Below, piece after piece: positions 41,730-64,000 of a DNA stretch of 64,000 nt (position 1 is its first letter; each line of letters begins with the position of its first letter). The DNA is taken from contig NZ_CP128402.1 of assembly GCF_030389965.1 (NCBI RefSeq), positions 62,001 through 126,000 on the forward strand, read 5' to 3'. This DNA is from Candidatus Chlorohelix allophototropha. GTDB lineage: Bacteria > Chloroflexota > Chloroflexia > Chloroheliales > Chloroheliaceae. The notes under the pieces are model-generated. The model saw nothing but the letters and a program-made list of their open reading frames with translations, did no database searches and had not been told where the DNA came from. Both the position numbers and the translations under genes were made by a program.

Positions 41730-41850
41730 ATATTGAAAACAAGCGTGAAATAATGAGCCAGAAACAAGCGTAAAGATTTGACCCACCTCCCTAACTAAAT
41801 CAAACTGGTTCTCCCTAATCAAAGCCCAAAGGCCGTAAAAGGAGAACAAT

Positions 41851-43898: not shown

Positions 43899-44054
43899 AA
43901 TTATTAGCTATACAGCTGATTGCCCTCCTCCCGACAATTGATTTTTCGGTAGTTGGCAATGCTTGTATGGTTTTAGAAACTGAATTGCAGACATTGAGGT
44001 GGGTCATTTTTTATGCTGGTTAGTGGGTCACTTTAAAACGCCTGTTGACAATAT

Positions 44055-44457
44055 CTCCCACCCATTTCTCATCAGGCTTGGTAGCCGTGAAATCCCGCTT
44101 TAGCCGGTTGGGTGCCACCGGGTTGTTGTGCTGGCTATTAGTCGTTAGAACCTTGCGCTTCTTACGTCGATGACAGGAGACTAGCCCCAGCAACCGCATC
44201 AGTCTGGCTACCCGCTTCCTAGAACAGTTTATCCCCTTACGCCTTAGCGCCGCCTTTACTCTGGGACTACCGTAAGTTTGCCGGGACTGCTCGAATATAG
44301 GCTCAATTTCTGCTCCCAGTTCCCGGTCAGCCTTGGCTCTGGCACTTTTTGGTCGTTTCCGCCAGGCGTAATAGCCGCTTTCAGAAACCACCAGCACCTT
44401 GCACATTAACCTTACCAGAAATTCCTGCTTGTGCTCATAAATGAACTGAAACTTCAC
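44055..44457 (-). pseudogene. IS3 OrfB transposase, N-terminal part
   Basis: The part begins at GTG 44457 and encodes the HTH_21-like region (VSESGYYAWRKRPKSARAK, SRQTYGSPRVKAALRRKGI) followed by the start of the catalytic core (KPDEKWVGDI). The last about 11 codons of the apparent frame come from the IS21 end. It overlaps the read-through end of OrfA as GTGA. Confidence 0.85.
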
Positions 44458-45021: not shown

Positions 45022-48000
45022 TCAATACAAATTATCACTTCGTAAAAGTTTTACAAGATCGTCAATCTCATCGGGAGTTACATACGGTACTTGGGCATAT
45101 ACAAGTGAAAGATTGCCTTCAAGTTTAGCTAATAAATGCCCTCTGCCAAGTAAGCGCTCTGCCCCACGTTCTCCTAAAGCAATCTCAGAGGTACCCTCAG
45201 AATCTACACGAAGTATTAAACGGTTACCTAAATTCGCTCGTAATTGCATTGGGACAACATTGGCTTCAGGCCGCTGCGCCGCAAACACTAAATAAATTCC
45301 CGCAGCACGTGCCTTTACGCCTAAACGCTGAACAGACGAGGAAACTTCTTGCTTATACTCGTCAGATAACATCCATTCAGCAAACTCATCGTGAATTAGC
45401 CACAAGGCTGGTAATCGTTCTCCAGAGCTAACTTTCTCATTATATGCCCGAAAATTTTGAACTCTAGCTTTCCTCATTAGTACATAGCGATTATCCATTT
45501 CGGTAATTAAAGTTTGGATGCGGTTAATAGCGGTATCTTGCTGGTCAATAATCCCACCGTCTAAATGAGGAAGGCTTTCGAAGGTGAAGTAATCAACCCC
45601 CTGCTTTGGATCAATTATCGTGATTCTTGCTTGCTCAGGTAGGTTAGTTGCAGCGATACTTAGTATAATATTTTGTACTAGAACAGACTTACCACTACCA
45701 GTTGTGCCAGCAATTAAAGTGTGGGGAGCATGATCGCTGCCCGGGGAAAGGATAAGTAATGTTCCATCATCTTCACGGACACCAATAAGTAGGTCCTGGT
45801 TTCCATTTTTTACGTCGGGTGTCCATCGTTGCCAGAGTTGGCGTAATGATACTGTTTGACGGCCGGGTCTTGCTATTGATAGTGACACTACACCAGGCTC
45901 CGGTTGTACACCAATTAAGTTGAGACCATGAGTCGTCAGAAACTCTGTTCTTCGCCGTGTCACTTGATCAATTGTAAGGAGTGAACTACCCTGGAATTTA
46001 AGTAGCGCTGCGTTTGGAGTTAATACACTATGAACAAGTTTTGCCTGTAGCTTAAACTGCTGTAAGGCAATTTTTGTAGTTGTTTCAACCTGTCGTAACC
46101 AGGACTGGTCTTCTTCACTTTCCTTGATGTCACGTGGGATTTCTTGAATCCACTTAAGTATACTAGGAAATGCCCATTTTTGAGATTCTCGAACCCCTGA
46201 CTCACTATCCGTTTTGAGCTTATCTGCACTGGGTACTGGCTCAATAATCACTATGGCGGAGTCATTTGTATTTTCTATTTTTTCTACTGCTGAATTATGA
46301 CTTTCGGTTACAAATGAATCACTAGGAATATTTACGTCTATATCATTTTTTTGATTTCTATCATTATTAGTGACCTTCCCACTTTGGTAATCTATAGAGC
46401 TTTGGGATTGACCAGGTCTATAGTGATTATTGCTCGTAACTAAATCCCAATAATTGACATCAATCTCACGCCTTACACCCATTGGATCGCCACGATGATA
46501 ATATCGCAGGACCAATTCTCGCACATGATCGCGGCCAAATACCTCCTGATGAGCGTCAAAACCATCTTTCGCTTCAGGCAGTCGTATGTGCGCGGAGATA
46601 TTTACTGCATCAGATGGACCAGATATGAACACATGAGAATATCCACGGAGCTCAAGAATGCACTGTCCATCACGAATTGCTCTCTGCCACTTTGATAAAT
46701 CTAGTGGGGCCCCAGAAGGAAGACGTATTCCATCCACTAACAAGTCTGAAAGGCGTGCTAGCCAAATATCACGGTCCAAACGCGGGGGTGTTGAAATAAC
46801 AGCGCCTGCAACACGCTTAAGGGTATCACGTAGTTGTTTATGAGATTCCTTACGTTTGCTAGCGAGACCGCCAAAGTCAATATACTTAGCCTCAGTTATT
46901 ATCACTACCAGGAGCATTTTATTTTCCGGCGTAAACGTCGGATGTAATACAAGCAGATCCGCAATTTGCTCTTCCTTTTGGCCCAGCCAATCGGCATAGT
47001 CATCCAGGAAAAACCAACCAACACTCTGATTATGACCAAGTTCGTAGCTAATGAGATATCGGCTTAAAACTATACCTATTAACTCACTGGCGCTCTGCCC
47101 TCGTTGCGCTGCACGTAAAACAATATCCCCCGATACATCATTTGCATCATTGATAAAGCGGGTAGCAAGTTCAGTTATATCGTTGTTGCTAATTCCCAAA
47201 TCAAGATTCCGGAGGCGATTCACCACCATAGAGCGTAAAAGACCCATGGGGGCCATAGAAGAGATAATCAAGTTACGCCCTTGCGTAGCTATATGTTTGT
47301 ACCGGATGATTTGTACTTTCTGCTCAATCAGCTGACGCCGGTCAAGCAGTTCGTCGTAATTAACCACCCAGCTAGCAAGGTTGTGAGTCTCTTCAAAAAT
47401 TTTTGCAGTTGTGCTGTCGCGAAAGTCGAGTTGCCGTGCTGGTAACAGGCGTGTTTCACGGCTACTATTCCAATCTCCTTTAAAGAATGTTGTTACTGCA
47501 GTAAGATGTGCCCAAGCTTCAGCTCGCTGAACAGGGCAACAAAGATATACTGTTGATTTCATATCACCGATAGTGGCTGGACGTCGACGAGACCATTGGG
47601 CAGGATTTAATGATGCTGGATCAGCAGGTTGAGAATTCACTAAATACCAATCCAGACGAGCATGGCGTGCAATCACATCTTGAAGAAAAACAATGTCTTG
47701 TGGGCAACCATCTAAGGGGTCAGGAGGCGGAGCTTGATCTGCTGAGATACCAATGCGTAGCCGAGCCATAAAATCTTGTGTAGCCTCGCTTGCAACATAT
47801 CTATCCCCCCCATCACCATCCGATGCATCCACGATCTGTTCATATAACCAGCTGAGTTGTTTTGGATCTCGATGTCTAAGTACAATCTGGCAACGAGTGT
47901 CCTCATCATCTTGATAAAGACGTCCAAATTTATCTACAACTGCCAGAGGCAGACGTGAAGAATCGCAATTATAAAGAACTACCGAGAGATTAGCTTGTTC

Positions 48001-50415
48001 ATGTGGATGCAGCTTGAGGTAGCGTTGAACAAGCTCTACTACCAGTGTTGCACCCTCAGAAGGATTTTCGTTTGTATCATCTGCACCAGCATCCGCAGCA
48101 AGAGGTGACTCATGAAGTGAGTAGTCTCCAGCAGTATCGGTTAGAGCTAAAAGCTCAGGTTGGTTATCTTGCCAGCCAAGTACAACTTCCGGATAATGTA
48201 TATGTGCTAGCTCCTCGCGCAACTCTGAAAAGAAAAGCCGAGGATCGCCAAATTCAATTTCTTGTGTTGTCAGTAAAGTGCGTATAACATTTGCGAAACG
48301 ACGTGCTTTCCGGGCCATTGCTGCTAAGCGTAATGGATGCCAGGGGGCAATAATTGCTGTAGGGCGACCACCTTCAACGCCTACAGTACCTAGTTGAAGG
48401 ATCGGACGTAAAAGCAATTGTCGATTACGATCACCCTGAGCCAGACAACAAATTGATTCAAGAAGTGTCCCATATGTGGTAACCTGATCTTCGAGTTTCA
48501 ATGAGGAGAGCCCAGTTACTTTAAAATCTATAACAGCTGCCTCATATTCTCGTGCAAATCTTTCAAATTCTGTAGCAAGTTGTTCAGCGTTACTCACGCT
48601 TATTAGATTTTTCGATTTTGCCTCATCCAATTTTGAATGCCATAAAAATTTCAGATCGTTAGCTTTTTTATATACACCAACTAGAGAACCTCTATCTTGC
48701 CCATAGGCTGCCATAAGCGTACGAACATTCCAGAGATCGACATTCTGTGCTGCTCCTTTACTACTTGTAGACTCGCGATTGGCCCGACAAATGATGAACG
48801 GTTTTGTCACCAACCGATTCCAATCATTGACAAACTCGCTTGCAATCCATTGAGGGTTATATCGCCAAATGAATTGAGCGACAGCTTGTTCATCTGCCCC
48901 ATCGAGAGTTTTAAATTCAAGGGTAACGAAGAATTTTAGTTGTAAAGTTGCTTTTGCTTCAGAACGATTCAACTGCTGCCCACGAACTTTCCATTCTTCG
49001 ATAAGGTCAGGAAACTTGAAAAGCGCGCCTACATTCCACTCAACATGACGACCAAGCAATTCTTTAAGACCCGCATAGCGTCTTGCAAAATAGAGACCGG
49101 CATCAACATTTAGGTTTCTTAAGTCTTTACGGTAGAGACTATCGCAACTTATAAGCAGCTTACGATTAGTACATGGTGTTTCCCAGCTAAAACCTTCCAT
49201 ACAAGTAACTAATCCGCTAAGAAAATCATGTGTTTCCTTTAGGGTTCCAAAAACGAAACGATCCCAGGCAGATTTAAGTTTGCGATCTTCACGCAATTCA
49301 TCGCGGTGAGCATCATAAAATTGGCGATCATCCTCAATATCCGCTTCGGAACTACGACGCCTGCTTAAGCGTTCAATGTAATCCAACTCTATCGTAGTTA
49401 ATAATTCTGGATTACGCTCCTTATAAAAATCCAAAGTCGCTTTCCCAAGGTTGAATTTCTCCCGTCTGAGACCATCAAAGAGTGGTCTAATATCTTCCCA
49501 TTCGCACTCGGATAAGTTTGCGGATTGTGGGGTCCAACCTCCCGGTGCTGCAATGAAATCAGAAATGACTTGATGATATTTCTCAGGAATATCGTTTTTA
49601 ACCCGCTCGAACGCTATTCTTAATTCATCTTCATTTAACATGACCCCAGAGGGATTTTGTTTGATCAGGTAGCAAGAGTACTTACTTTGAACCATTTTAT
49701 ACTGAGCGCGCCACTTTGCTACCTGGCCACGCGTACCCGGTGCCATTCCCCGGAATTGACCGGCTTTTTTAGGCAGCCGAAGCGCAGGTAGCGCTGAATC
49801 TAAGGCTTCGTCAAAAGGAAGACCCTCTTCTTCAATTAACTTTTTTGTCCGTAATACATAGTTTGCATACCGGTCAAGGTTTACGAAATTCTGATCGTTG
49901 AGACCCTTTAAAGCTTTTTCCCACCATCTCCGGACATCGTCTAAAATGGCTAAATCTTTACACGCAGCCAAAACCCATAGATCTGCTCGAGCCAGCAAAT
50001 CTGGAGCCCCAATAGAACTTACTTCACGGAGGGATTGTTCCTCGTCGTCACCAGTATTAGCAAGTAACAAAGCTGGTTTCGCACAGGGGGCGTTTCGAAA
50101 GTAGGTCGCCCTTTCTTCTGTGAGTATTTCTGAAGGCAATTCAAATCCAGACATGAAGTGCTTGGGCAGTTTGATGTCAAATTGCTCTGATAAATGGGGG
50201 TCAGCCAGGATTGCCTGAGCGATTGCCGCGGTCTGCATCGGTGATAAACAATCAATGATGAAACGTGCTGTTCCACTTATATTTCCACTTGCATCATCGT
50301 CATCTAATCGTTCGCGCAGATACGAGGCAACAACATTCCCTAGGAGTATCTCGCGCGATTGAGATACTTTTTGTGTGCTATCAGTTGTTGAAGCTGGGGT
50401 TTGCTCATTAGTCAT
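45022..50415 (-). CDS. DptH-like FtsK/HerA DNA translocase, 1797 aa
   Basis: The C-terminal about 230 residues are an FtsK/SpoIIIE-type motor: Walker A GTTGSGKS (about 1570-1577), Walker B LWLIHDEF (about 1671-1678), and FAAQRPEANVVP. The very long N-terminal part (about 1500 residues) has no motif I recognise. Size, domain order and place as the third of three genes match DptH, the helicase of phosphorothioation-dependent restriction, which with DptF and DptG cleaves unmodified DNA. The start ATG 50415 overlaps the preceding gene by 8 bases. It is the last gene of the operon. Alternative: another HerA-type defence motor. Confidence 0.65.
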   Translation of the reverse strand: MTNEQTPASTTDSTQKVSQSREILLGNVVASYLRERLDDDDASGNISGTARFIIDCLSPMQTAAIAQAILADPHLSEQFDIKLPKHFMSGFELPSEILTEERATYFRNAPCAKPALLLANTGDDEEQSLREVSSIGAPDLLARADLWVLAACKDLAILDDVRRWWEKALKGLNDQNFVNLDRYANYVLRTKKLIEEEGLPFDEALDSALPALRLPKKAGQFRGMAPGTRGQVAKWRAQYKMVQSKYSCYLIKQNPSGVMLNEDELRIAFERVKNDIPEKYHQVISDFIAAPGGWTPQSANLSECEWEDIRPLFDGLRREKFNLGKATLDFYKERNPELLTTIELDYIERLSRRRSSEADIEDDRQFYDAHRDELREDRKLKSAWDRFVFGTLKETHDFLSGLVTCMEGFSWETPCTNRKLLISCDSLYRKDLRNLNVDAGLYFARRYAGLKELLGRHVEWNVGALFKFPDLIEEWKVRGQQLNRSEAKATLQLKFFVTLEFKTLDGADEQAVAQFIWRYNPQWIASEFVNDWNRLVTKPFIICRANRESTSSKGAAQNVDLWNVRTLMAAYGQDRGSLVGVYKKANDLKFLWHSKLDEAKSKNLISVSNAEQLATEFERFAREYEAAVIDFKVTGLSSLKLEDQVTTYGTLLESICCLAQGDRNRQLLLRPILQLGTVGVEGGRPTAIIAPWHPLRLAAMARKARRFANVIRTLLTTQEIEFGDPRLFFSELREELAHIHYPEVVLGWQDNQPELLALTDTAGDYSLHESPLAADAGADDTNENPSEGATLVVELVQRYLKLHPHEQANLSVVLYNCDSSRLPLAVVDKFGRLYQDDEDTRCQIVLRHRDPKQLSWLYEQIVDASDGDGGDRYVASEATQDFMARLRIGISADQAPPPDPLDGCPQDIVFLQDVIARHARLDWYLVNSQPADPASLNPAQWSRRRPATIGDMKSTVYLCCPVQRAEAWAHLTAVTTFFKGDWNSSRETRLLPARQLDFRDSTTAKIFEETHNLASWVVNYDELLDRRQLIEQKVQIIRYKHIATQGRNLIISSMAPMGLLRSMVVNRLRNLDLGISNNDITELATRFINDANDVSGDIVLRAAQRGQSASELIGIVLSRYLISYELGHNQSVGWFFLDDYADWLGQKEEQIADLLVLHPTFTPENKMLLVVIITEAKYIDFGGLASKRKESHKQLRDTLKRVAGAVISTPPRLDRDIWLARLSDLLVDGIRLPSGAPLDLSKWQRAIRDGQCILELRGYSHVFISGPSDAVNISAHIRLPEAKDGFDAHQEVFGRDHVRELVLRYYHRGDPMGVRREIDVNYWDLVTSNNHYRPGQSQSSIDYQSGKVTNNDRNQKNDIDVNIPSDSFVTESHNSAVEKIENTNDSAIVIIEPVPSADKLKTDSESGVRESQKWAFPSILKWIQEIPRDIKESEEDQSWLRQVETTTKIALQQFKLQAKLVHSVLTPNAALLKFQGSSLLTIDQVTRRRTEFLTTHGLNLIGVQPEPGVVSLSIARPGRQTVSLRQLWQRWTPDVKNGNQDLLIGVREDDGTLLILSPGSDHAPHTLIAGTTGSGKSVLVQNIILSIAATNLPEQARITIIDPKQGVDYFTFESLPHLDGGIIDQQDTAINRIQTLITEMDNRYVLMRKARVQNFRAYNEKVSSGERLPALWLIHDEFAEWMLSDEYKQEVSSSVQRLGVKARAAGIYLVFAAQRPEANVVPMQLRANLGNRLILRVDSEGTSEIALGERGAERLLGRGHLLAKLEGNLSLVYAQVPYVTPDEIDDLVKLLRSDNLY

Positions 50416-52051
50416 TTTTCCATCTCCCGTAGGGATTTTCTACATAAGCACATGCATCTGAAAGTCTACGTAGCAAACCTAAACTAGCTAACCTCTGCTC
50501 TAACCGACGTGCATTAGCCTGAAATGCTTTTCGGTCGAATTCCTCTGTAGATAGCACTTGCTCAGCTTCGTGGTCACCGATCACTAACCCATATTTCTTA
50601 AACAGATGGGCTAAAAACTCATCAAACTCCATACGTCGATCTACTGTAGCGAATAAGAGTGTTTTTATCAATTGATCTGTAGGAGCGTAACGAAAACGTG
50701 TTGTTCCCCTCCTTGAAATAAGACCAATTTCTCTGCCATAACTACGATGAACTTGCGCTACATGCTGCTTATGACCCTTTCGAATCTCTCCCTTTAACTC
50801 GTCTAATAGTTTATCTGGGTCATTAGCTCCTTTGTAGTCGTCGCCCCACCAAACCGCCTCTCGCACAACGTTTAAGCAACGCACATATGCACCTGAATCC
50901 CCTTCAGTTAAAGCCGATTGCCAAGAATGGGATTGGCGGATACGTTCAACAAAAAACTCAGCAGCCTGGGTAGATATACCATTGTTAAGACCATAACTCT
51001 CCAAGGCGATCTCTCGCACAAGTGTTTTCTTCGGGGCTATAATTTCACAAACCAAATAGAATGGATTTTTATTATCTGCCCAAATTGATGCGACCGCTAG
51101 GTGGTAGCGTAATAAATGCAGTGCGGAAAGGGTTACCAAATGTGGATATCCGTCGAACGCAGGCAACTGTAATTTGTAAATAGCGAGCCAATCTCGTGCA
51201 AGATCGTCATATACAGGATGATAAAGATATGGTAAAAAGCAACTCTTGTTTTCACCTTCTTGGTCATTTTTATCATCCGGTTGTAATGACGCAACTAGTT
51301 TATCCCATCGATTACTTCCTTCAACCATAACTCGAACGGAATTTGTTAACTCACTACGATAGGACGAGCGAGATAACATTGTATAAAGAATTTCTCCACT
51401 CCGACCAAAATTAATATATTCGCGACTTGGTTGACCGTTAAGGTTGATATTGAGATCGATGTAAAGTGAATTCTGTCCAAAAGGGAAAACAAATCGCGAA
51501 GACCAGCGTTTATTGCTTTCCCGCTCTACCGCCGTGCCTCGAATGATACGAACTACTTTCGCAAACTCATCAAACGAATGAAAGCGCTCTCTAAGATATG
51601 AAAAATCACGCTCTGGCACGCCTTGCGCTGAATCTTCCATACTCTTGAGCCATTTTTGCCAGGCTCTTCCACTATCCCCTTGCTCTTCAGCAATGCGGAA
51701 CACTTCATCATTGTTGAAAAGAATATTGCGCAGATACATGCGTTGTCGTGGCCTATAGCGTAAGGGGTAGGGGGCGTTATCTGAGAAAAGTTGCCCTTGT
51801 CGATGGCGTGCTTCAGCAACATTCAAAAATTCAAGGAAAACAAGCCAGGGACTTTGTGAATCCCATATGCGGTGTCCCCAAATCTGTTCATCTAGCCATA
51901 GATCAATTTTATGATCTTTTTTATTTGGGCGGAGTCCTGAGGGTGATTCGACAAAAGGCAAGGTATCCAATACACCAGTCCAGACACCTGGGCAGAGTGT
52001 AATGGCGGATTGTTCGGTGTTGAATGATTTAGTTTCAGAAGTAGACGGCAT
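50408..52051 (-). CDS. DptG-position protein, 547 aa
   Basis: I do not recognise a domain with certainty. The protein has a central aromatic-rich region (YPLRYRPRQRMYLRNILF) and an ordered C-terminus (YAPTDQLIKTLLFATVDRRM, then FDEFLAHLFKKYGL). There is no Walker motif, signal peptide or membrane segment. Its size and place between an ATPase and an FtsK-type giant match DptG of the DptFGH restriction set. The gene is 28 bases after the ATPase gene and overlaps the next by 8 bases, so all three should be co-expressed as one complex. Assignment rests mainly on context. Confidence 0.5.
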   Translation of the reverse strand: MPSTSETKSFNTEQSAITLCPGVWTGVLDTLPFVESPSGLRPNKKDHKIDLWLDEQIWGHRIWDSQSPWLVFLEFLNVAEARHRQGQLFSDNAPYPLRYRPRQRMYLRNILFNNDEVFRIAEEQGDSGRAWQKWLKSMEDSAQGVPERDFSYLRERFHSFDEFAKVVRIIRGTAVERESNKRWSSRFVFPFGQNSLYIDLNINLNGQPSREYINFGRSGEILYTMLSRSSYRSELTNSVRVMVEGSNRWDKLVASLQPDDKNDQEGENKSCFLPYLYHPVYDDLARDWLAIYKLQLPAFDGYPHLVTLSALHLLRYHLAVASIWADNKNPFYLVCEIIAPKKTLVREIALESYGLNNGISTQAAEFFVERIRQSHSWQSALTEGDSGAYVRCLNVVREAVWWGDDYKGANDPDKLLDELKGEIRKGHKQHVAQVHRSYGREIGLISRRGTTRFRYAPTDQLIKTLLFATVDRRMEFDEFLAHLFKKYGLVIGDHEAEQVLSTEEFDRKAFQANARRLEQRLASLGLLRRLSDACAYVENPYGRWKND

Positions 52052-52079: not shown

Positions 52080-53948
52080 TTACATTTCACGAATCTCTAG
52101 ATTCTGTACTGTAACCTTGCCTGTTTCTTCGACTTCTAAAAGTCTAAAGGCAAGTGATGCATCGTTCTGTTCTTCTCCATCATGAATTTGACGTTTAGTT
52201 AACGCAGTCAGTAATTGGCTTTTAAAGGCAAGCACATCTTCATAACATTCTTTTGAGAAACTACTTGGTAAAGCCCCTTGTGCAACACGACTGAGAAATT
52301 CATAACGGGTAAGATAGAGAGGAAATGTGCAACTGATTTCGCGGCTGAATGCTACCTCTAACAGAGGTACAGTTCCATCTTCACGCAAAATAATATCAAC
52401 CCTTTCACCTCGTCGTGGCTCAACCGATATGCGTTCCTCTAAAAGTCTACTTACCTTACCTTGTGACAGCGCCAGACTTGTAGCCAGCAGAAGATCTCGG
52501 TCATCTGAGACTAACATTCCTGTGAATACTCGATTAAGGCCACGAACAAGTCTTGCTAAGATTGTCCGGGCTACCCGTTTCCCCATTTCCAAGGCACTCA
52601 CGACTTGTTCAAGGTATTCACCAGCGAAGCAAAAAACAGTCAAATCCCATAGATGCATGTCGGCTGCTTCGCTATGAGGTATTTTAAAGAAAAGGCCTCT
52701 TCGCTGACTGACAAGCATTCGTAAAAATCTGGAGCTACGTTCTTCATCTTCATCTGTTCCCTCTATGTATTCCCGCTGTGCAGCAGCATAACTGGGATCA
52801 GCTCCATAAAATTTATCGGTGTTTATATATTGATTGAAATAGGGCTGTAAAAGTTCATCAGTATCACCAAATATGAGTATGTTATCAATGCGATTAGAGG
52901 TTTCAAATCCTATCCCGAATCGGTTGAGAGCATCAAAGACAAGGATAGACTCACGACGCGTATCCGATAAATTCCCTCCCAAAAGATTATTGTAAAGACT
53001 TGCTTTAGCAACAGTTCCTTTACGGATAATATTAGGTACATCGTTTGCCTTCATAAGTTGATCTTTGGCATCTGGATGACCGAGAACTGCATTAACCAGT
53101 AACAAAAGAATCTGTCGTATTGGAAGGTGGTATTGGTTATAATCGCACAATGAGAATAAATCCTGTAGTCGATTTTGTACAAGAGGAGTTGCTAGTAACT
53201 CCAGGTTGTGTCTGATAGGACACTCTGAGCCGAAAAACTCACTAGACCCACTTTCGAGAGAACGGCATATTTCCCACCCTGGTGCTTCTAAGAAACATTG
53301 AAGCGCACGCTCAAAGAGATCTGCCGAATGATGCCGGCTAAGGTTAAAAAGTCGTAGAGCGACACCTGATTGTTCCTGGTGATCTTCAACAAGGAGTGTT
53401 TCAAGCACCTCTTGCGCCTGCGTCATATATTTGGAAGGATCAAGACGACGCCATGCCTCCATAAGCTGCCCATCATTAGCAGCAATTAGAAATAACTCAT
53501 CTCTATTGTTCTCAAAGAGTGAAGAGCTAAAACGTTGTAGTAAATCTGTTTTTACTGGATCCCAAGGCATTCCGCGTTCAGGTGACCATGCGCTTAAATC
53601 TCGTACCATATGCAATAATCTGTCGCTCCTGCTCAGTTGAACAGACAGGTATGGGCTAGGGGATTGCCACATTCTTGAGTCGCCACCAACGGCTTCCCAA
53701 ACACGTCGGCATAGATGTGTTTTACCATCGCCAGCGGTACCTGTAAGTATGACAGAGACTGGCTGCGATCCTGTTATTGCTTCTAGCACATTTTCGGTTG
53801 CGGGATGTTCGAATTGGAGTGGGACCACCCCTGCACGCATAGCTGACCGCCTGATAAATTCATCATACATGTTTTCATTATGCGGAACTGGCCCATATTG
53901 CCGGAGAAAGCGAATCCAATTATATGCCTGTGTCTTTAGATCCTTCAT
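52080..53948 (-). CDS. DptF-like P-loop ATPase, 622 aa
   Basis: Walker A GTAGDGKT lies at residues 70-77 (VILTGTAGDGKTHLCRR). The sequence after it (ELFLIAANDGQLMEAWRR) is a likely sensor/Walker B segment. The rest is helical and not recognised. Family and position resemble DptF, the ATPase that with DptG and DptH performs phosphorothioation-dependent restriction. It directly follows the dndC-like gene (30-base gap), the expected arrangement of a modification gene next to a restriction gene set. Homology to AAA-type ATPases is clear; the DptF identity is likely but not proven. Confidence 0.65.
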   Translation of the reverse strand: MKDLKTQAYNWIRFLRQYGPVPHNENMYDEFIRRSAMRAGVVPLQFEHPATENVLEAITGSQPVSVILTGTAGDGKTHLCRRVWEAVGGDSRMWQSPSPYLSVQLSRSDRLLHMVRDLSAWSPERGMPWDPVKTDLLQRFSSSLFENNRDELFLIAANDGQLMEAWRRLDPSKYMTQAQEVLETLLVEDHQEQSGVALRLFNLSRHHSADLFERALQCFLEAPGWEICRSLESGSSEFFGSECPIRHNLELLATPLVQNRLQDLFSLCDYNQYHLPIRQILLLLVNAVLGHPDAKDQLMKANDVPNIIRKGTVAKASLYNNLLGGNLSDTRRESILVFDALNRFGIGFETSNRIDNILIFGDTDELLQPYFNQYINTDKFYGADPSYAAAQREYIEGTDEDEERSSRFLRMLVSQRRGLFFKIPHSEAADMHLWDLTVFCFAGEYLEQVVSALEMGKRVARTILARLVRGLNRVFTGMLVSDDRDLLLATSLALSQGKVSRLLEERISVEPRRGERVDIILREDGTVPLLEVAFSREISCTFPLYLTRYEFLSRVAQGALPSSFSKECYEDVLAFKSQLLTALTKRQIHDGEEQNDASLAFRLLEVEETGKVTVQNLEIREM

Positions 53949-53978
53949 TAGTTACCACTTAATCAATTAAAGGTAAGG

Positions 53979-54794
53979 TTAAATTGAACAAATAAGACAT
54001 CCCTCAGGTTCATCAATCTCCTCATAATTTACTACACCACCAAGTGTTTCGACTAAAGTGAGATTTTTACGTTGTGTAAGCTTACGTGCTTGCGAAGCTT
54101 CCCATTTTGCCTTTATCTCGGCTATGCGTTCAGGGCGCTCAAGACTGGCCAGAGACTCCGACTCTTGCCAGAAAAATTCTTCACCATGCAAAACACTTTG
54201 TTCCTCATAGCGCTTGGCCTCTTCAAACAAATCAGGATGTGTTTCTTTAAGACGTACCCATTCTATTTTTTGCTGATAAAAACAGAAAAAACAACCGGAG
54301 CGGGTGCGACCCCAGGTTGTATACTGGGGGAGTCCAAGCCCAGATTCCTCTAAAATACGAAAAATATCAGCTTTTACTAACCCATCTTCTCGAAAAGGAT
54401 AAACAGTTTGGATATTTGGCTTGGTACTGATGTAACCTGTACGTTTCTCGTCAGCACGTAACGCAACATAGTTAATAACCGGATCGCTGCCCACGTAATG
54501 CTCAAAAGGTTTTAGTTTAAGATTTTTTGTGCACCAGCGACGGTGATTCGAAGGTAACATGCCACCGTAAACTGTCAGCCAATGATCGAAATTATCCACC
54601 CTGGAAGTTTTGGTAATCGGCTTACCCAAAATAGCTTGGAGTCGGCCCAGATATTCGATGGTTTCCGGAAGTTCTTTATCTGTATCGTGAAAAATGTACT
54701 CCATTTCAGGAATACGATCCCTCATATATATAGCTAATGCTGCACTGTCTTTACCACCTGAAAGACTAAGTATGTGTCGTATTGGTTTATCCAT
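53979..54794 (-). CDS. DndC-like PP-loop sulfurtransferase
   Basis: This 271-aa protein belongs to the PAPS-reductase/ATP-pyrophosphatase family. The PP-loop SGGKDS is at 12-17. RWCTKNLKLKPF (C88) and RSGCFFC (C168, C171) are the cysteines that in DndC help bind an iron-sulfur cluster; a further CLIC pair (C266, C269) ends the chain. DndC transfers sulfur from the DndA cysteine desulfurase to DNA backbones. It is much shorter than classic DndC (about 480-500 aa), closer to minimal or SspD-type members. It lies between the receiver-like gene and the DptF-like gene. Sulfur chemistry is well supported; DNA as substrate is inferred from the neighbours. Confidence 0.8.
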   Translation of the reverse strand: MDKPIRHILSLSGGKDSAALAIYMRDRIPEMEYIFHDTDKELPETIEYLGRLQAILGKPITKTSRVDNFDHWLTVYGGMLPSNHRRWCTKNLKLKPFEHYVGSDPVINYVALRADEKRTGYISTKPNIQTVYPFREDGLVKADIFRILEESGLGLPQYTTWGRTRSGCFFCFYQQKIEWVRLKETHPDLFEEAKRYEEQSVLHGEEFFWQESESLASLERPERIAEIKAKWEASQARKLTQRKNLTLVETLGGVVNYEEIDEPEGCLICSI

Positions 54795-54804
54795 TATCTA
54801 TCCC

Positions 54805-56949
54805 TCAGTTAGTAGGATCAATGTTGATAATTAGTATTTTTTGTTTAGCTTTTTTTTCTTTATCTTCGTCTGTTAACCCATTACCTAACATGAGAACCCA
54901 ATCAGGGTTTAAAAGACTTTGTAATTTACCTGCACTGGGAAGGTTGTGCTGTGATATCCAAAGATTACCCCATTGTTGAAAATCATTTAAAACATTTGCC
55001 AAAACTGGATTACGTTTTCCCTCTTTACCTTCTTCATATCTGTTAGATAATACATTTCTGATTTTTTCTACAAGTGATAAGGTTAACATAAACTTAGAGC
55101 CATCCCTAATGCTAATAATACCAGCACTTTCAGCATCATCTAAATGAACTTCTTCAAAGTTCCCACCATTTTGTAGTAAAAGTTTGATATTTGCTTGTCG
55201 GTAAATGGGAGGTGCTACTGGCAGCCCAACTCGGGTGAGATCTGCCGCGAAGCTACGCTGAATTTCTAATGCGAAAGGTAAACGGAGACGAGCTTTTCGA
55301 TCAAGGTTTGCCTCGTTGTACCATTTCATAAAACTACCATAATGAATAGATCTGACTTTTTTTGGTTCCCATATAATCCTGTAAGCTTGATTCTCGTGTG
55401 TAAACAATTCTGTACGAGGACCACGGTTTTCTTTGCTACTAACGGGTTGCAATTCCCCTTCTATTAATAGAATGGCTTGTTCTGAATCTATCTTACGTTT
55501 ACCTTTATTTGGAGTAAACGTAAGATCACATTCATTATTAATAATCATATATAGTTTTGGTAAGCTCTCCTCATAGTTTTTAGATAATAAACTTGGGCTC
55601 TCAGTAAGTGGCTTATTAGGTTTTACTAGTTCATTATCTGTAGGTGTCACTTGCTCTGAAATTGAGAATAATTGGCTTTTTTCGGTCTCAGTAATTGGAG
55701 GTATTTCTTGCTTGTTTTCTATCACTGCCAAGTTATTTGTAGTTTCAAACAAAGACTCTTCTAGTTCTTCACCTATAGTAATAGCTTGCTCTAATGGAGT
55801 AGGCTGGGTTGTTTGTCCTAGAAATACATCACCTAAGCTCAAGTATGGCTCTATACTGTCTGGATCTGAAACTTTATTGGGAATTTTGGGATGCGGACTA
55901 ACAGTGCCTACTTCTGTATCAAAAAGGGCATGCTGATATATTTCTGCCAATCGTATGGAAGGAGGGGTGTGAATTGGGATAGCATGGGTGAAATCGGCAA
56001 CATTTAGCTTATCACGTGTATCTTTTAGACCTTTGTCAAAAAGGAGATAACTAAAATATGAGCTAAATAGCCAGAACATATAGCTTCCTAAGGGTTCACC
56101 CTCCTCTTGGAGACATAAGCTCTGTATAAAGGCATAGTCGTTCAGGGTCAATTCCTTGATATGTTCAGTGAATATTGATTTAACTTCATCTATTTTCTTA
56201 CACACACTGTCGACAAAGTCTTGCATATGATGACCAACTGGTAAGGAAAGGGCATACATTTGCAAGTTCATGGTAAGTTTGAACAGGTCGCGTAAATCCT
56301 GCTTGTGTACAGCGTAAAACATACCACCCAATAAACCTGATCTTTTCCGGAAATCATCCTTTTCCTCAACAACACCTGGTCGACTTGACATTAGTACCAC
56401 TAAGGGCTTAGTCGCTTGTCGTGCTTCATACGCTGTAAATATTTCCTTTGCCTTTCTTACTGCAGGTTCAACTATATCTACGCCTGTTGTAGAAGGGTTT
56501 AAATGCCAGTCAAGAAAAAATATGTTAATCGATGTATCGTTGATTTCGTCTCCGGGGGTAAATGTTTGCACCTTAAGATTGAAATTTTTTTCCAGGTGAT
56601 TTTTGATAGGATCTAACAAAGCAGTACGTTGGTCTATCCATATTCCTAATTCGGACTCCCGCCAGATTTTATCTAGAGCTGGATACTTATTACGCTGACT
56701 CAGGAACTTGCATATAAATGTAATTGTGATTTGTTCAAATCCAACAACACTGTCATCAAAGCTCTCAAGCTCGGAAAATGCAGTATCCTCATTCTGAATA
56801 GCTGCCCAAAGATTCTCAGCGTTATAACTACTTATTTCTAACTGTTCAAGGGGTATATAGTCATCATCGATAATGCCTACATTAGTTATTCCATGTTTAG
56901 CAAGTAGAGTAGTAACATGGTTCTCTGCGTTGGTAGCACTATTGGTCAT
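54805..56949 (-). CDS. Receiver-like domain protein, 714 aa, partner of the GHKL protein
   Basis: The N-terminal region has the key residues of a response-regulator receiver: acidic D28-D30 (VGIIDDDY), a phosphoacceptor-like D147 (IFFLDWHL), S188/S189 (VVLMSSRPG) and K216 (YAVHKQDLR). An insertion of about 110 residues separates the first strand from the third, unlike standard receivers. The middle is acidic and low-complexity. The last about 180 residues are folded but unrecognised (FALEIQRSFAADLTRVGLPV). It overlaps the histidine-kinase-like gene upstream by ATGA. I infer it receives a signal from that protein and passes it to the modification or restriction proteins. The receiver call is from motif reading only. 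Confidence 0.55.
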   Translation of the reverse strand: MTNSATNAENHVTTLLAKHGITNVGIIDDDYIPLEQLEISSYNAENLWAAIQNEDTAFSELESFDDSVVGFEQITITFICKFLSQRNKYPALDKIWRESELGIWIDQRTALLDPIKNHLEKNFNLKVQTFTPGDEINDTSINIFFLDWHLNPSTTGVDIVEPAVRKAKEIFTAYEARQATKPLVVLMSSRPGVVEEKDDFRKRSGLLGGMFYAVHKQDLRDLFKLTMNLQMYALSLPVGHHMQDFVDSVCKKIDEVKSIFTEHIKELTLNDYAFIQSLCLQEEGEPLGSYMFWLFSSYFSYLLFDKGLKDTRDKLNVADFTHAIPIHTPPSIRLAEIYQHALFDTEVGTVSPHPKIPNKVSDPDSIEPYLSLGDVFLGQTTQPTPLEQAITIGEELEESLFETTNNLAVIENKQEIPPITETEKSQLFSISEQVTPTDNELVKPNKPLTESPSLLSKNYEESLPKLYMIINNECDLTFTPNKGKRKIDSEQAILLIEGELQPVSSKENRGPRTELFTHENQAYRIIWEPKKVRSIHYGSFMKWYNEANLDRKARLRLPFALEIQRSFAADLTRVGLPVAPPIYRQANIKLLLQNGGNFEEVHLDDAESAGIISIRDGSKFMLTLSLVEKIRNVLSNRYEEGKEGKRNPVLANVLNDFQQWGNLWISQHNLPSAGKLQSLLNPDWVLMLGNGLTDEDKEKKAKQKILIINIDPTN

Positions 56950-59378
56950 GCTGTCACGCCTCCAAGAGTAAGTACAAATGTATTATATGTTCCATCAGGT
57001 TCTGTGGTTTTTTCTGCAAGAAAAACATCTTCTCCATGATACTTGGCTATCTCACGAGCGATAAAAAGCCCTAAACCTTTTCCCTGACCTGGGGGTTTTG
57101 TGCTAACGAATGCTTCAAATATTCGCTCTTTCAGCCCTGGGAGGATTCCTGGTCCATTATCAGTTACTCTAAGCTCTTTCGCTGTAGCATCGACAGTAAC
57201 CTTAATTTCTGCTTTGAAGGTTGGATCAAGCATTCGTTGCTGACGTAGCCAATAAATAGAATTGGTGATCAAATTGTCAAGGATTTGCATCATCATTCCT
57301 TTTACAGCATTGATCATAAATTTGTTGATCTTTGAAGAAGGTTCTAACTCTAATATGGGTGTAATCTGCTCATTAGCAAAAGGAATTTGTTTTGATTCAA
57401 AAATATCACGAATCACATTGATCAAATCAAATTTTTCCTTGCGCTGTCGGCCAGCTGTACTTAGTTGGTCAAGGATCTGGAGGCGCTTCTGTAAGGTTTT
57501 GAGCTGCACTTCAAGGGTTCGGATAAGTGCGTCTTGTGAGTTTGGAGAGCTACCTTCCCGAACATTAGCAAGAGTTAACAAAGCGTGTTCTGTTGCACGA
57601 TTAAGCTCATGCGCAAGCACTTCTACTGACAACCCTATTCCCGCCAAGTTTAAAAGCTGTCTGCGACCCTGCTCGTATTCAGAGGCGATTACCTGAACCT
57701 CTTGCATAATTTCTCGCAAGTGCGAACTTGATGTTCGAATTTCGTTGAAAAGAGACCCTTCCCTTTTAATTTCAGGAACTCGCCCGGCTAATTTATCTAA
57801 ATTGATCCGAAGTTGTCGATCTTCATCTTCTACCCTCTTCTCAAGTTCTTCAATAAGTACTGGTTCTCGTGCGCTAAGCTCTTTATCCGTTTTATCGAGA
57901 AATGCACGTAATTCCATTTGGATTACATATTTTAATAACGAAATTAATACAAACTTTTCCTCAGAGTCTCGAAGTCCCTCACGGTTTGACTGGTCTATTA
58001 ACTCAGAATTCAGGACACTTGTGATATTTAAACGCCCAATCAATTGTGCGCGATTAACTTTATAACCAGATGAGCTAAATGCTCTACGATCTAGATCGAG
58101 CCAGTCATCACGTAAATCACCGTAAGGTAATACACGAAAACCGTCCCGGAAAACCATAATTCCGCCACCCCATTCTCGTACTAGGTTGGCAACAGTATTG
58201 CGATCACCAATTCCTTCAAGTGCAGTCAGTATCCGCCGGTTATACCAATAAATTTCTAAATTGAATGGTCCAAGGGATTTCAGTAGTCGCATTCGTTCCA
58301 TACCCTCAGAGGGTAAAAGATTGTTTGTAAGATCTAATGATTTCTTAACTCTGGGTTTTTCTAAAGGGTTTAGTACTACAGAAATTAGATGGGCACCCTC
58401 AAGTGCAAAGTATTGTTGTCGCTCTCTATAACGTACAGAACCAGATAATCTCATCTCGCCATTGCTCTGCTGTATAAATTGTGCCTTGACAATAGCATGA
58501 GCATTCTCAAGTAAAAGGTTTTTGAATCGCGGAATTATTACTGGTTCTTGGTTGAATCGAAGCTGGATGGGAAATATGGTGGTTTCAGTAAATGGATCGG
58601 TTAGCTTACTGAACTCCTGTATGGCTAAGGTTTCAAGTCTGTCTTTAGACCATGCTGAAGTCAACCAACTAATTCGAATAATTGTGCCAGATACACTAGT
58701 GTCCCTTTTAGACGCGCCAAGATGGGGTTCAATTTTGAATTCGCTTAAAAGTGCATCGGAATCGTGAGAAAAAACCGACCAATCTATGTCTAGGACATTC
58801 CATTTGCTTTCATCTGCCTGTGTTGATTCCACATGTAATTGGGTACCAAGTCGCATTGCAGACAAACGTCCTATACCTTTTTCACCCAGCAATGGCCGCC
58901 CGCTTGAATTGTTATGCCCTTTATCACGTAATAAACGTCGAGACCTTGTACCAATTGTTAGATACACATCATTAAGTGTTTGGAGAGACATCCCCTCACC
59001 AGTATCGCTGACAACTATTGAATTACTTTCTGTTAGTACACGCAGAAGATCAGGCCAGGTTTCTGCTTCCAAAATAGTCTGACGGAACTCCTGTATATTA
59101 GGTACAGTCATGTCAATAGTAGCTAACGCTGTCTGCTTAAATGCTTCAATTGAAGTGACGGCACCAGAGTCACTTTCTACACTAATGTCTTGGCTACGTG
59201 AATATTCAATAAAATTCAATAAAATTGAATGGGGAATGCGGACAGTTACGTCAATCGTAACGCGTTTCGAACCGGCATCAAATGCATTTTTAACCAACTC
59301 AAAAAGTGCCACACCGTCTGAACTGATAAGTTCAGCACCTAAGTGGAGGAGGGTTCGAGCAGCAACTTGAAATGGCAC
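56946..59378 (-). CDS. Dual GHKL ATPase: MORC/MutL-like N-terminus fused to a histidine-kinase C-terminus
   Basis: Two ATP-binding GHKL domains are visible. The N-terminal one has the MORC/Hsp90/MutL motifs ALFELVKNAFDAG (E27, N31, D34), SDTGEGM (124-130) and GEKGIGRLSA (165-174). After a helical region, a HisKA-like helix with VLAHELN (H590) is followed by the kinase-type domain: N-box LDNLITNSI (about 700), DNGPGI (740) and GKGLGLFIAREI (about 766). Start is GTG 59378 after GGAGGAGG; the previous stop overlaps it by one base (TAGTG). The protein may sense DNA or modification state and signal by phosphotransfer to the 714-aa protein. The fused architecture is unusual. Confidence 0.8.
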   Translation of the reverse strand: MPFQVAARTLLHLGAELISSDGVALFELVKNAFDAGSKRVTIDVTVRIPHSILLNFIEYSRSQDISVESDSGAVTSIEAFKQTALATIDMTVPNIQEFRQTILEAETWPDLLRVLTESNSIVVSDTGEGMSLQTLNDVYLTIGTRSRRLLRDKGHNNSSGRPLLGEKGIGRLSAMRLGTQLHVESTQADESKWNVLDIDWSVFSHDSDALLSEFKIEPHLGASKRDTSVSGTIIRISWLTSAWSKDRLETLAIQEFSKLTDPFTETTIFPIQLRFNQEPVIIPRFKNLLLENAHAIVKAQFIQQSNGEMRLSGSVRYRERQQYFALEGAHLISVVLNPLEKPRVKKSLDLTNNLLPSEGMERMRLLKSLGPFNLEIYWYNRRILTALEGIGDRNTVANLVREWGGGIMVFRDGFRVLPYGDLRDDWLDLDRRAFSSSGYKVNRAQLIGRLNITSVLNSELIDQSNREGLRDSEEKFVLISLLKYVIQMELRAFLDKTDKELSAREPVLIEELEKRVEDEDRQLRINLDKLAGRVPEIKREGSLFNEIRTSSSHLREIMQEVQVIASEYEQGRRQLLNLAGIGLSVEVLAHELNRATEHALLTLANVREGSSPNSQDALIRTLEVQLKTLQKRLQILDQLSTAGRQRKEKFDLINVIRDIFESKQIPFANEQITPILELEPSSKINKFMINAVKGMMMQILDNLITNSIYWLRQQRMLDPTFKAEIKVTVDATAKELRVTDNGPGILPGLKERIFEAFVSTKPPGQGKGLGLFIAREIAKYHGEDVFLAEKTTEPDGTYNTFVLTLGGVTA

Positions 59379-62300: not shown

Positions 62301-62872
62301 CCTGAATAACCTGGAATATTAGCTAAATCTCTAATTAGCTCAAGAAGCTCTTGATTATCTCCACTATTTTGAAGTCTCTTAGCACGTTCTTTTAGAAGGT
62401 CTCTAATATCATTTTGGCTTAGCAGACAATCTAGACTCCACAATATTCCCCGTGCAATAGCAGAGACTAAACCCTCGCGTGCTCCTGTAACAATTACTGG
62501 TATTAACTTGAGGTTAAGAAGCTTTGAATTTGCATTTTCAATAGCTAACCGCGCTGGAGTAACAGCAGGTTTCTCTGGGTTGTAAAGTACATGCGCAAGA
62601 AGAAGGGCAAATGAAGATTTACCTGAGCCATAGTCACCAGTAATTCTCCAGGCACGGCGTCCTGAGTTCGGCCGCAGACCTTCCGTTATCCTAATAAGAG
62701 ATCGCTCCATAGACGGCGTTAAAATGTATTGCTCTAACAACTCAACATCATGAAAATCGCGTTCAATATGTATAGATCTTAGGTAACGGTCTGGGATTCG
62801 GAAAAGATTTTGAATCAGTCTATGATCTTCTTCTAGTCCGACTAAAAAATGGGTTTTAGGTTGTTCATCCAT
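59378..62872 (-). CDS. Large AAA-type ATPase, PglY/BrxC-like, about 1164 aa
   Basis: This is a P-loop ATPase with Walker A GDYGSGKS (about 79-86) and Walker B LLVLDEMGK (about 192-200), followed by a helical region. The Walker A form with a Tyr before GSGKS resembles BREX ATPases of the PglY/BrxC class. The remaining about 900 residues have no motif I can name. The open frame reaches ATG 62911, but I prefer ATG 62872, which overlaps the DUF4007 stop by 8 bases. In BREX such ATPases work with the methylase or phosphatase; here no PglZ or BrxX is visible and sulfur genes are. It could supply energy or regulate the modification complex. Confidence 0.65.
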   Translation of the reverse strand: MDEQPKTHFLVGLEEDHRLIQNLFRIPDRYLRSIHIERDFHDVELLEQYILTPSMERSLIRITEGLRPNSGRRAWRITGDYGSGKSSFALLLAHVLYNPEKPAVTPARLAIENANSKLLNLKLIPVIVTGAREGLVSAIARGILWSLDCLLSQNDIRDLLKERAKRLQNSGDNQELLELIRDLANIPGYSGVLLVLDEMGKLLEYAALYPDREDVYLLQRLAEMAARSGNHPVVLVGLLHQGFHAYAERLPSAVRHEWEKVAGRFDEIVFDQPLTHTVTLVSSALNVITEQLPQEIIHNAETIIKSTLSTGWYSTAGNTLSELNLLKLYPLHPTVIPVLINFFSRFGQHERSLFGFLLSTEPYGLQAFAERPIKAGGYYRLSNFYDYIRANFGHRLDGASFRSQWLRIVDILDSADINDEVALAILKTVAVLNLIDSEQYLATDVALLSATVDNDPTYKVETAIAKLKDRGLLFKRGTAGGYRLWSTTSINLETRFEDAKRALGPIEQVAIHLPNYLDVPVPTLLARRHYIKTGTMRYFEVRYTDFTSLSKDAIRPTAADGLVVVALCDTPSEQIKAREFAQGSEAASRPEILIAVPFPLIGLRNEVQDVRCWEWVKSNAPELTDDIYASAEVSREIAATRRTLRNRLTALISFGHADTGMEIEWWRKGQPLSIEQGHGILLTLSAVCDELYNDAPYIKNELLNRSILSSAAANARMRLIERMLEAPNKPFLGINQDKAPPEKSMYLSVLKAGVIHRELDGQYIIEEPEEENDTLQLRPALLKILNILEEAQEQRVSVPTIITALTSRPFGIRMGVIPLLLAIVVAGHSHELAVYENGTFITGLNPSNFLRLIKAPATFEFQMVRVAGVRVRLFNRLARIFVDSPDKDLELLDVVRSFINFAAELPEYTRRTVNLPTIASRVREVLFKAREPRPLLFKELPEACGVESFSAEETPDTERIEKFVTLLQQALNDLRNTYPLLLERIRSKVANALGEGEGAIDRERIASRATNVAVAASESRLRTFALRLGDTRLNSDSWAEALGSFVIAKPTRNWLPGDEKKAGEEIEILCNTFQRLEAITFSQHNYTTSGPAVRVGLTHSNGMEAMQVVQVRPEIELEVKNKVSELQGLLPESEELRLAILVQLLEQSLNKKDKSDVVPQGGGA

Positions 62873-63785
62873 GATTGTATCCAGTCTCATAAACTGTCGC
62901 CAAAAAGTCATAATCAGGAATATTGTTTCGCGTTACCTGACCTTGCACCGCTGATAATTGGTATTCAAATGGTTGAGCTACACCAGACATTACATACAAT
63001 TCAAGGCGTGTTCTCAAATCATCCTCTGGTAGCTTGAATACTTGGCCTATACTACACTCTGCGACAGCAATATCTCGGAATGTAAGGGTTCTTTCGGTTT
63101 GATGCCACCTGTTCCAATAGTCATCTAAGCAATATTCGAATACAGCCTTTGTCAATTCAGGTTTGGCCTCTCGACGGAACAAATAAACATCCTCTAAAGG
63201 TCCTTTCAAACCTATTCGTCGTTGGCCTGATTGCCTCAATAGAGCAAGTTCAACAAACGGACTGTCCAGAGAATCTTCAATAGCTGTCCGTTTTTGTGAC
63301 GGTAAATATGTACGAAGAAATATATCCAGATGCTGCGCTAAAGTGACGGAAGAATGTGAATAACCTAGCCGCTTTCCTTCCCGTTCAAATGCCGTTACGA
63401 CTTCACTTCTACTTAATTCTGGGTACGGCCAGCGATTTAAAAGGAAGTTCCAAGCGAAAATTGGATCAGCCTTTCGGGAGGATAAATGCCAATGGAGTAG
63501 CCAAAGAGTTTGTATATTCTCAAGATAAGGATCAAACCCATCTTCTGAGAAAACTCTTCTGCCAAAGGTTGTTAAGTTGAACACCTTCTGCTGTCGATTA
63601 GGAATTGCCACTCCCATTACTTCAACCCAAAAACGAATTGAGTTAACCATGTTTTTACCAACGCCAAGCTTGACCATTGCTTCTTCGTCATTAGTTAATA
63701 CAGAAGGATTCTCTGCAATAGCACTACAAGCTTTTGGCAACCAAGTATAGCGACAAATAAAAGTCTCGTGTCCAGAAAATCTCAT
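62865..63785 (-). CDS. DUF4007 family protein
   Basis: The N-terminus RFSGHETFICRYTWLPKACS and the KLGVGKNMVNSIRFWVEVMG stretch are the DUF4007 signature. This family of unknown function is often found beside PAPS-reductase-like and other DNA-sulfur genes. The protein is 306 aa with no membrane segment or catalytic motif that I can see. ATG 63785 overlaps the upstream desulfurase stop (ATGA), so translation is coupled. Its role is unknown; it may help sequence recognition or regulation. Confidence in the family is good. Confidence 0.8.
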   Translation of the reverse strand: MRFSGHETFICRYTWLPKACSAIAENPSVLTNDEEAMVKLGVGKNMVNSIRFWVEVMGVAIPNRQQKVFNLTTFGRRVFSEDGFDPYLENIQTLWLLHWHLSSRKADPIFAWNFLLNRWPYPELSRSEVVTAFEREGKRLGYSHSSVTLAQHLDIFLRTYLPSQKRTAIEDSLDSPFVELALLRQSGQRRIGLKGPLEDVYLFRREAKPELTKAVFEYCLDDYWNRWHQTERTLTFRDIAVAECSIGQVFKLPEDDLRTRLELYVMSGVAQPFEYQLSAVQGQVTRNNIPDYDFLATVYETGYNHG

Positions 63786-64000
63786 ATAGCTGCAATTGCC
63801 CTTCGTGTATCTTCTACGGCCGCAGCAAAATAACCTGCTGCGCGCTCGATTTCATCATCAGTTGTAAATTTGCCTAACCCGATACGGAAGGCTCCGTTTT
63901 GCAATTCTTCAGCTAAGCCCATAGCGTTAAGAACGTGTGATGGTGTATCCACAGCGGACGTACAAGCAGCCCCCGTTGAAATAGCCAAACGGTTACGTAA
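63782..64000 (-). CDS. Cysteine desulfurase, C-terminal end (partial, DndA/IscS-like)
   Basis: Only the last about 72 residues lie in the window. They hold the catalytic-cysteine loop (STGAACTSAVDTPSHVL), then FRIGLGKFTT, matching the C-terminus of IscS/NifS/DndA PLP enzymes that release sulfur from cysteine. The protein continues beyond 64000 to the right. As the most upstream visible gene of the operon it should supply sulfur to the dndC-like enzyme. Whether it is a dedicated DndA or a general IscS cannot be told from this fragment. Confidence 0.85.
   Translation of the reverse strand, partial: LRNRLAISTGAACTSAVDTPSHVLNAMGLAEELQNGAFRIGLGKFTTDDEIERAAGYFAAAVEDTRRAIAAI

What the first reader, a model, noticed from the sequence alone, without database searches (positions are those of the whole stretch)
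52080..54794. Short DndC next to a DptFGH-like trio without visible dndB, dndD or dndE
The PP-loop protein is about half the length of classic DndC and no DndD ATPase or DndE is in the 19 kb seen. Either these lie beyond 64000, or the DUF4007 protein and the large AAA ATPase replace them, defining a distinct modification machinery.
Basis: partly seen in the sequence, partly recalled or inferred. Interest (0 to 1): 0.7.

Follow-up and report, generated by a model that had tools for sequence, protein, structure and literature searches.

The report
Sulfur-DNA defence island with embedded signalling pair
The genes are a known bacterial defence system that marks DNA with sulfur (Ssp, not a crippled Dnd), but they carry two extra genes, a DNA-clamp-like histidine kinase and its partner, which in nearly every genome examined sit beside sulfur-marking genes and may be a missing partner of many such systems.

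Summary
The short PP-loop protein is SspD. The DUF4007 protein is SspB, the large AAA ATPase is SspC, the desulfurase just past base 64000 is SspA, and the 'DptFGH-like trio' is SspF, SspG and SspH. This is SspABCD-SspFGH, a published phosphorothioate (PT) defence system that naturally lacks DndB/D/E. A complete dndBCDE locus does exist in this genome, but on another contig. What is unusual lies between sspC and sspD: an 810-aa protein with two intact GHKL ATPase sites and a histidine-kinase H-box ('HK'), and a 714-aa protein with a complete receiver site plus a C-terminal 'CDL' domain ('RR'). In GTDB species genomes, 42 of 44 close homologues of this HK lie beside PT genes (40 Ssp, 2 Pbe/Dnd-type), against 0 of 36 distant homologues. 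All 15 plasmid records with the HK also carry sspD. Thirty-one loci, including Acinetobacter baumannii, have sspC/D plus HK and no sspFGH nearby. Distant relatives sit beside DNA methyltransferases. I interpret HK-RR as a paraMORC/two-component-like partner module of DNA-modification systems, here dedicated to PT. Its biochemical role is inferred, not shown.

The parts
63782..64000 (-). sspA, cysteine desulfurase: only its 3' end is in the window; the gene spans C4:125782-126963 (L005:5782-6963), 393 aa, and overlaps the sspB start by 4 bases
   Evidence: PADLOC SspA 9e-107 / DndA 4e-107; Aminotran_5 1.7e-54; ORF
62865..63785 (-). sspB (DUF4007), 306 aa; published Ssp work describes SspB as the DNA-nicking component
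   Evidence: DUF4007 2e-66; PADLOC SspB 2e-107; function from PMC8092258
59378..62911 (-). sspC, BrxC-like AAA ATPase, 1177 aa; takes the place of DndD
   Evidence: PADLOC SspC E=0, 1334 bits; BREX_BrxC 2.7e-12
56946..59378 (-). HK: paraMORC-type GHKL ATPase fused to a histidine-kinase-like H-box and catalytic domain, 810 aa; both GHKL sites and H590-E591 intact
   Evidence: HATPase_c_3 2e-16, HATPase_c 2e-21, HEF_HK 0.004 (HEF_HK in 21 of 31 family members); invariant columns; PT neighbourhoods
54805..56949 (-). RR: receiver-like domain with D28 D29 / D147 / S188 / K216, a middle region, and a C-terminal GD...CDL...RxG domain of unknown function, 714 aa
   Evidence: Invariant receiver residues in 42 homologues; profile match to R-M-linked receiver proteins, probability 99, E 6e-18
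53979..54794 (-). sspD, PP-loop ATP pyrophosphatase/sulfurtransferase, 271 aa; SGGKDS and five Cys (88, 168, 171, 266, 269) conserved
   Evidence: PADLOC SspD 6e-117 versus DndC 0.002 and BrxP 1e-9; cysteine conservation
52080..53948 (-). sspF, P-loop NTPase, 622 aa
   Evidence: PADLOC SspF 3e-220 versus DndF 8e-4
50408..52051 (-). sspG, 547 aa
   Evidence: PADLOC SspG 3e-192
45022..50415 (-). sspH, 1797 aa, C-terminal FtsK/HerA-like translocase
   Evidence: PADLOC SspH E=0, 2135 bits versus DndH 0.025; FtsK_SpoIIIE 6e-33

Best explanation
This is a horizontally acquired SspABCD-SspFGH phosphorothioate defence island with a two-gene accessory module inserted in its operon. Known part (from published work on homologues, not tested here): SspA/SspD mobilise sulfur, SspB nicks DNA, and SspBCD install single-strand PT marks; SspFGH act against phage DNA in PT-marking cells. 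New part (inferred): HK is a soluble paraMORC-type GHKL ATPase fused to a histidine kinase core, and RR is its cognate receiver protein with a conserved C-terminal output domain. I propose that HK engages DNA or the Ssp complex through its N-terminal GHKL clamp, responds to invading or unmodified DNA by autophosphorylating H590, and passes the phosphate to RR D147, switching the CDL output domain. That output would either act as an effector itself, or control SspFGH or modification. Loci with sspBCD plus HK-RR and no sspFGH nearby suggest that HK-RR can be the only linked partner of PT modification.
For: Ssp identity. HK-RR linkage: 38 of 44 close HK homologues in GTDB genomes have sspB/C/D within 10 kb; 2 more (L023, L038) have sspFGH in the locus and sspD on the same contig 10-17 kb away; 2 (L025, L054) sit beside Pbe/DndD-type PT genes; 0 of 36 distant HKs have Ssp genes. 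Plasmids: 15 of 15 full-length HK-bearing records carry sspD. RR follows HK immediately wherever the contig continues. HK and RR trees co-vary (Mantel r 0.93) and both follow sspD more weakly (r 0.34, above all 999 permutations). On the sspD tree the HK label needs 6 changes versus 29 for shuffles, and the window's SspD sits in a 26-of-26 HK-bearing clade. Gene order varies (between C and D, after D, convergent, after H), yet linkage persists. All receiver and kinase residues are conserved. Acquisition: GC 42% versus 50-53% around; 0 of 31 other sspD-bearing genomes of the same class have a close homologue of this HK beside ssp (one, G407, has a distant one).
Against: The RR C-terminal domain has no recognised catalytic motif, so 'effector' is a guess. 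HK-RR is rare: 1 of 49 sspD-bearing genomes sampled without regard to HK, although 15 of 65 plasmid records. It is therefore accessory, not core. In the window sspFGH is present, so HK-RR is not needed as sole effector there. L057 has HK-RR without any ssp genes.
Confidence: 0.66

Rival explanations
1. HK-RR is an ordinary regulatory two-component system that controls transcription or level of the ssp genes, with no direct role in restriction.
For: HK/receiver residues are complete; the HK core resembles ordinary kinases; PT systems are known to be regulated (general knowledge).
Against: No recognised DNA-binding output domain in RR; no recognised sensory domain in HK, but a second GHKL ATPase of the paraMORC type tied to R-M loci (PMC8011034); R-M-linked cousins have the same CDL domain beside MTase-like genes.
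Confidence: 0.2
2. The locus is an incomplete or degenerate Dnd system, with dndB/D/E lost or elsewhere in the genome and used in trans.
For: A canonical dndBCDE set exists on contig C3.
Against: All genes except the desulfurase match Ssp models by hundreds of bits and Dnd models only marginally (SspD 388 versus DndC 15 bits; SspH 2135 versus DndH 10 bits); sspA-B-C-D are complete; the C3 locus has its own dndC.
Confidence: 0.03
3. HK-RR is an independent anti-phage system that merely shares defence islands with ssp.
For: Varied gene order and orientation relative to ssp; L057 and a few loci without ssp nearby.
Against: Neighbours other than PT genes do not recur comparably (most frequent other family in 7 of 54 loci); the split between close (42/44) and distant (0/36) homologues; clustering on the sspD tree.
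Confidence: 0.12

Closest known systems
SspABCD-SspFGH (PMC8092258)
   Same: All seven proteins, sspA-B-C-D and sspF-G-H, in one collinear cluster
   Different: Two extra genes (HK, RR) between sspC and sspD; that paper's text holds no kinase term
HEF_HK / Response_reg_2 TCS-like pairs of paraMORC type (PMC8011034)
   Same: HATPase_c_3 + H-box + HATPase_c kinase linked to a receiver protein; linked to DNA-modification genes
   Different: That work links them to methylation R-M systems and does not mention PT, Dnd or DUF4007; the window HK scores below the HEF_HK cut-off and its RR has no Response_reg_2 hit
Ssp locus of Acinetobacter baumannii global clone 2 (PMC12421847)
   Same: L015 (A. baumannii): the same HK-RR pair convergent with sspDCB; the authors note a two-component system near an Ssp lacking its nuclease
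   Different: Only a remark in their discussion; no family, conservation or receiver/GHKL analysis in the text read. That their two-component system is this pair is my inference
VcSduA (Shedu with GHKL domain, PMC12137116)
   Same: A paraMORC-type GHKL ATPase needed for phage defence
   Different: Single protein fused to a DUF4263 nuclease; no receiver partner described
Type 4 BREX (PMC12839542)
   Same: PAPS-reductase, DUF4007 and BrxC-like ATPase
   Different: No PglZ or BrxL here

Membership tests
SspABCD-SspFGH | SspB (DUF4007), SspC (AAA ATPase) and SspD (short PP-loop) encoded together | tested here: met
SspABCD-SspFGH | SspA cysteine desulfurase adjacent, or replaced by IscS | tested here: met
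   L005:5782-6963, (the SspA and DndA models score equally)
SspABCD-SspFGH | SspF, SspG and SspH linked | tested here: met
SspABCD-SspFGH | PT modification of DNA and phage restriction | not testable with these tools
   needs LC-MS and plaque assays
Dnd (DndBCDE) | DndB, DndD and DndE next to DndC | tested here: not met
   the complete set is on contig C3 instead
Type 4 BREX | PglZ and BrxL present, BrxP-type PAPS reductase | tested here: not met
   no PglZ/BrxL hit in the nine-gene cluster; SspD 6e-117 versus BrxP 1e-9
HEF_HK/Response_reg_2 TCS-like (HK) | HATPase_c_3 + HEF_HK + HATPase_c architecture | tested here: inconclusive
   Architecture present; HEF_HK 18.1 bits against cut-off 24.1 in the window; 21 of 31 homologues match at E<=0.1
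HEF_HK/Response_reg_2 TCS-like (RR) | Response_reg_2 receiver domain | tested here: inconclusive
   Hit in 2 of 42 homologues only (best 0.0026); receiver residues invariant; profile match to R-M-linked RRs
Two-component system | His-to-Asp phosphotransfer | not testable with these tools
   residues conserved

The most novel reading that the evidence does not exclude
paraMORC-HK plus REC-CDL is a general, exchangeable sensor/effector half of DNA-modification defence: paired with methyltransferases in some genomes and with PT machinery (Ssp, Pbe/Dnd) in others. In loci without SspE/SspFGH it would be the actual restriction partner, using a His-Asp phosphorelay as the switch for self/non-self discrimination, and would account for part of the many 'orphan' sspBCD loci, including those of A. 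baumannii global clone 2.
Probability: 0.35. Interest if true: 0.85.

Novelty: new variant of a known kind. Interest (0 to 1): 0.56.

Why it matters
The SspFGH authors reported that 2,211 of 2,678 sspBCD loci lack both known restriction partners and asked whether other partners exist (PMC8092258). In A. baumannii, 61.9% of genomes carry Ssp, nearly always without SspE (PMC12421847). HK-RR is a concrete candidate partner: conserved, specific to PT loci and testable with two point mutations. If it restricts, it would be a defence system switched by a two-component-like phosphorelay.

Tried and rejected
The RR profile against PDB sequences gave no hit. Pfam, NCBIfam and PADLOC scans of the window RR were empty. 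An SspE search in the HK-bearing loci by DUF262-like motif found no convincing candidate; the only clear motif was DGQHR in L059, and PADLOC/Pfam tallies of 58 neighbours showed no SspE among the 25 commonest families; single-member families beyond the list cannot be excluded. The 'Dnd beyond 64000' idea was rejected after reading contig C4 past the window. A PT link of the distant HKs was rejected (0 of 36).

Full report
WHAT IS THERE. The reported ORFs are real. On the minus strand, in transcription order, the island reads: sspA (C4:125782-126963, starting beyond the window), sspB/DUF4007 62865-63785, sspC 59378-62911, HK 56946-59378, RR 54805-56949, sspD 53979-54794, sspF 52080-53948, sspG 50408-52051, sspH 45022-50415. 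Neighbouring genes overlap or are separated by about 30 bases or less. PADLOC assigns SspA 9e-107 (DndA 4e-107), SspB 2e-107, SspC E=0, SspD 6e-117, SspF 3e-220, SspG 3e-192 and SspH E=0; for all but the desulfurase the Dnd models score far lower. SspD has an intact SGGKDS PP-loop, and five cysteines are conserved throughout an alignment of 93 SspD sequences. Its 271 aa is normal for SspD, so nothing is missing.

DUF4007 and the AAA ATPase do stand in for DndD/E, but this is the published SspABCD-SspFGH system (PMC8092258). No dndB/D/E lie upstream of the desulfurase; the genes there are a RecG-C-like ORF, an IS, ParB_N, Fic and T4SS-type genes. A separate canonical dnd set (dndB, dndC, dndD, dndE and a second dndB-like gene) is on contig C3 of the same genome, next to a helicase ORF that resembles a PT restriction helicase and starts near a transposase (the helicase reading is by eye). 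The genome thus holds two PT machineries.

THE EXTRA PAIR. HK has an N-terminal HATPase_c_3 GHKL domain, an H-box and a C-terminal HATPase_c. The key nucleotide-site residues of both ATPase domains and the H-box His-Glu are invariant in 31 homologues. RR has no Pfam, NCBIfam or PADLOC hit, but across 42 homologues D28, D29, D147, S188 and K216 are invariant, the residue set of a receiver domain, as are G373, D475 and R573, with C474 nearly invariant.

ASSOCIATION WITH PHOSPHOROTHIOATION. Of 44 close homologues (30% identity or more over most of the protein), 38 have sspB/C/D within 10 kb; L023 and L038 have sspFGH in the locus and sspD on the same contig 10-17 kb away; L025 and L054 sit beside PbeA/PbeC/DndD-like, dnd_rel_methyl or dnd_assoc_4-like genes. 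The remaining two are L039 (a 5.9-kb contig) and L057 (no ssp). Of 36 distant homologues, none has ssp genes. RR follows HK in every close locus where the contig continues. On plasmids, 15 of 15 records with a full-length HK also carry sspD, and 15 of 65 sspD records carry HK; ten of these regions were inspected and the genes are neighbours. The pair occurs between sspC and sspD (window, L020, L051, probably L040), after sspD, convergent to it, or after sspH: order changes, linkage stays. Thirty-one loci have sspC/D plus HK and no sspFGH within the fetched stretch, and no SspE was detected in them (with limits). A. baumannii L015 is one.

EVOLUTION. HK and RR distances correlate at r=0.93, and with SspD at 0.34, above all permutations. 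On an SspD tree the HK label changes 6 times against 29 for shuffles (sampling was partly by HK, so this shows clustering, not frequency); the window's SspD falls in a 26-of-26 HK-bearing clade with proteobacterial and planctomycete sequences, apart from the HK-less SspDs of its own class. Two plasmid SspDs over 60% identical to the window's (Hymenobacter yonginensis, Sphingomonas paucimobilis) have no listed HK, so the clade is not strictly HK-bearing. The island has 42% GC in a 50-53% setting. It was therefore most likely acquired horizontally with the pair. In samples not chosen for HK, 1 of 49 sspD-bearing genomes had it: it is an uncommon accessory.

WIDER FAMILY. Distant HK-RR pairs often follow a DNA methyltransferase-like gene (NPPY/DPPY motif near 22 of 38 loci, PCQ near 7, by motif only). 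Their partner proteins share the receiver-like + middle + GD...C(D/N)L architecture, and profile comparison of the two RR groups gives probability 99, E=6e-18 over 331 columns. PMC8011034 described the HEF_HK/Response_reg_2 pairs with R-M systems but not PT. The Ssp branch extends that theme from methylation to PT.

MECHANISM. Shown: gene identities, intact residues, linkage, co-evolution. From literature on homologues: PT synthesis by SspABCD and phage restriction by SspFGH. Inferred: HK senses DNA or the Ssp complex through its paraMORC clamp, phosphorylates RR, and RR's CDL domain acts as output. Whether that output restricts, triggers SspFGH, or tunes modification is open; I favour a direct role in defence over plain transcriptional control because RR has no recognised DNA-binding domain and the pair occurs without sspFGH.

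NOVELTY. The Ssp system itself is already known. Its dedicated HK-RR module was not found described in the searched papers, except for one sentence on A. baumannii (PMC12421847). Most subscription papers and preprints were not searchable.

Noticed in passing
G000 contig C3:312600-322050 (L165, L166): A second, canonical PT locus: dndB, dndC, dndD, dndE plus a second dndB-like gene, an HNH-like ORF and a PT-restriction-like helicase ORF that seems truncated beside a transposase, with a DndD-like fragment at C3:314562-314885.
   Followed up: partly
L008:18627-21158, L009:11291-13891, L021:7430-9868, L030:12455-14905, L032:2-2077: A recurrent ~820-870-aa protein with GHKL-like motifs near HK-RR Ssp loci, without Pfam or PADLOC hit where tested; possibly another accessory.
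   Followed up: no
L066-L070, L072, L077, L080, L083, L091-L094: Compact three-gene cassettes: NPPY-motif methyltransferase-like ORF, paraMORC-HK, ~550-620-aa receiver-CDL protein, with no obvious nuclease gene; candidate minimal modification-defence systems.
   Followed up: partly
L025:4733-9896 and L054: The close HK-RR pair beside PbeA/PbeC/DndD-type PT genes instead of ssp.
   Followed up: partly
window 41273-44457 and L005:9490-11233: IS3-, IS21- and another transposase-type ORFs on both sides of the island, with ParB, Fic and T4SS-pilin genes upstream: the island lies in a mobile context.
   Followed up: partly
L005:7638-8918: 426-aa ORF upstream of sspA with a RecG-C/HATPase_c_4 domain; PADLOC reports weak pAgo-associated matches.
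   Followed up: no
L059:14242-15609: A DGQHR-motif (DndB-like) ORF next to an sspBCD-A-HK-RR locus.
   Followed up: no
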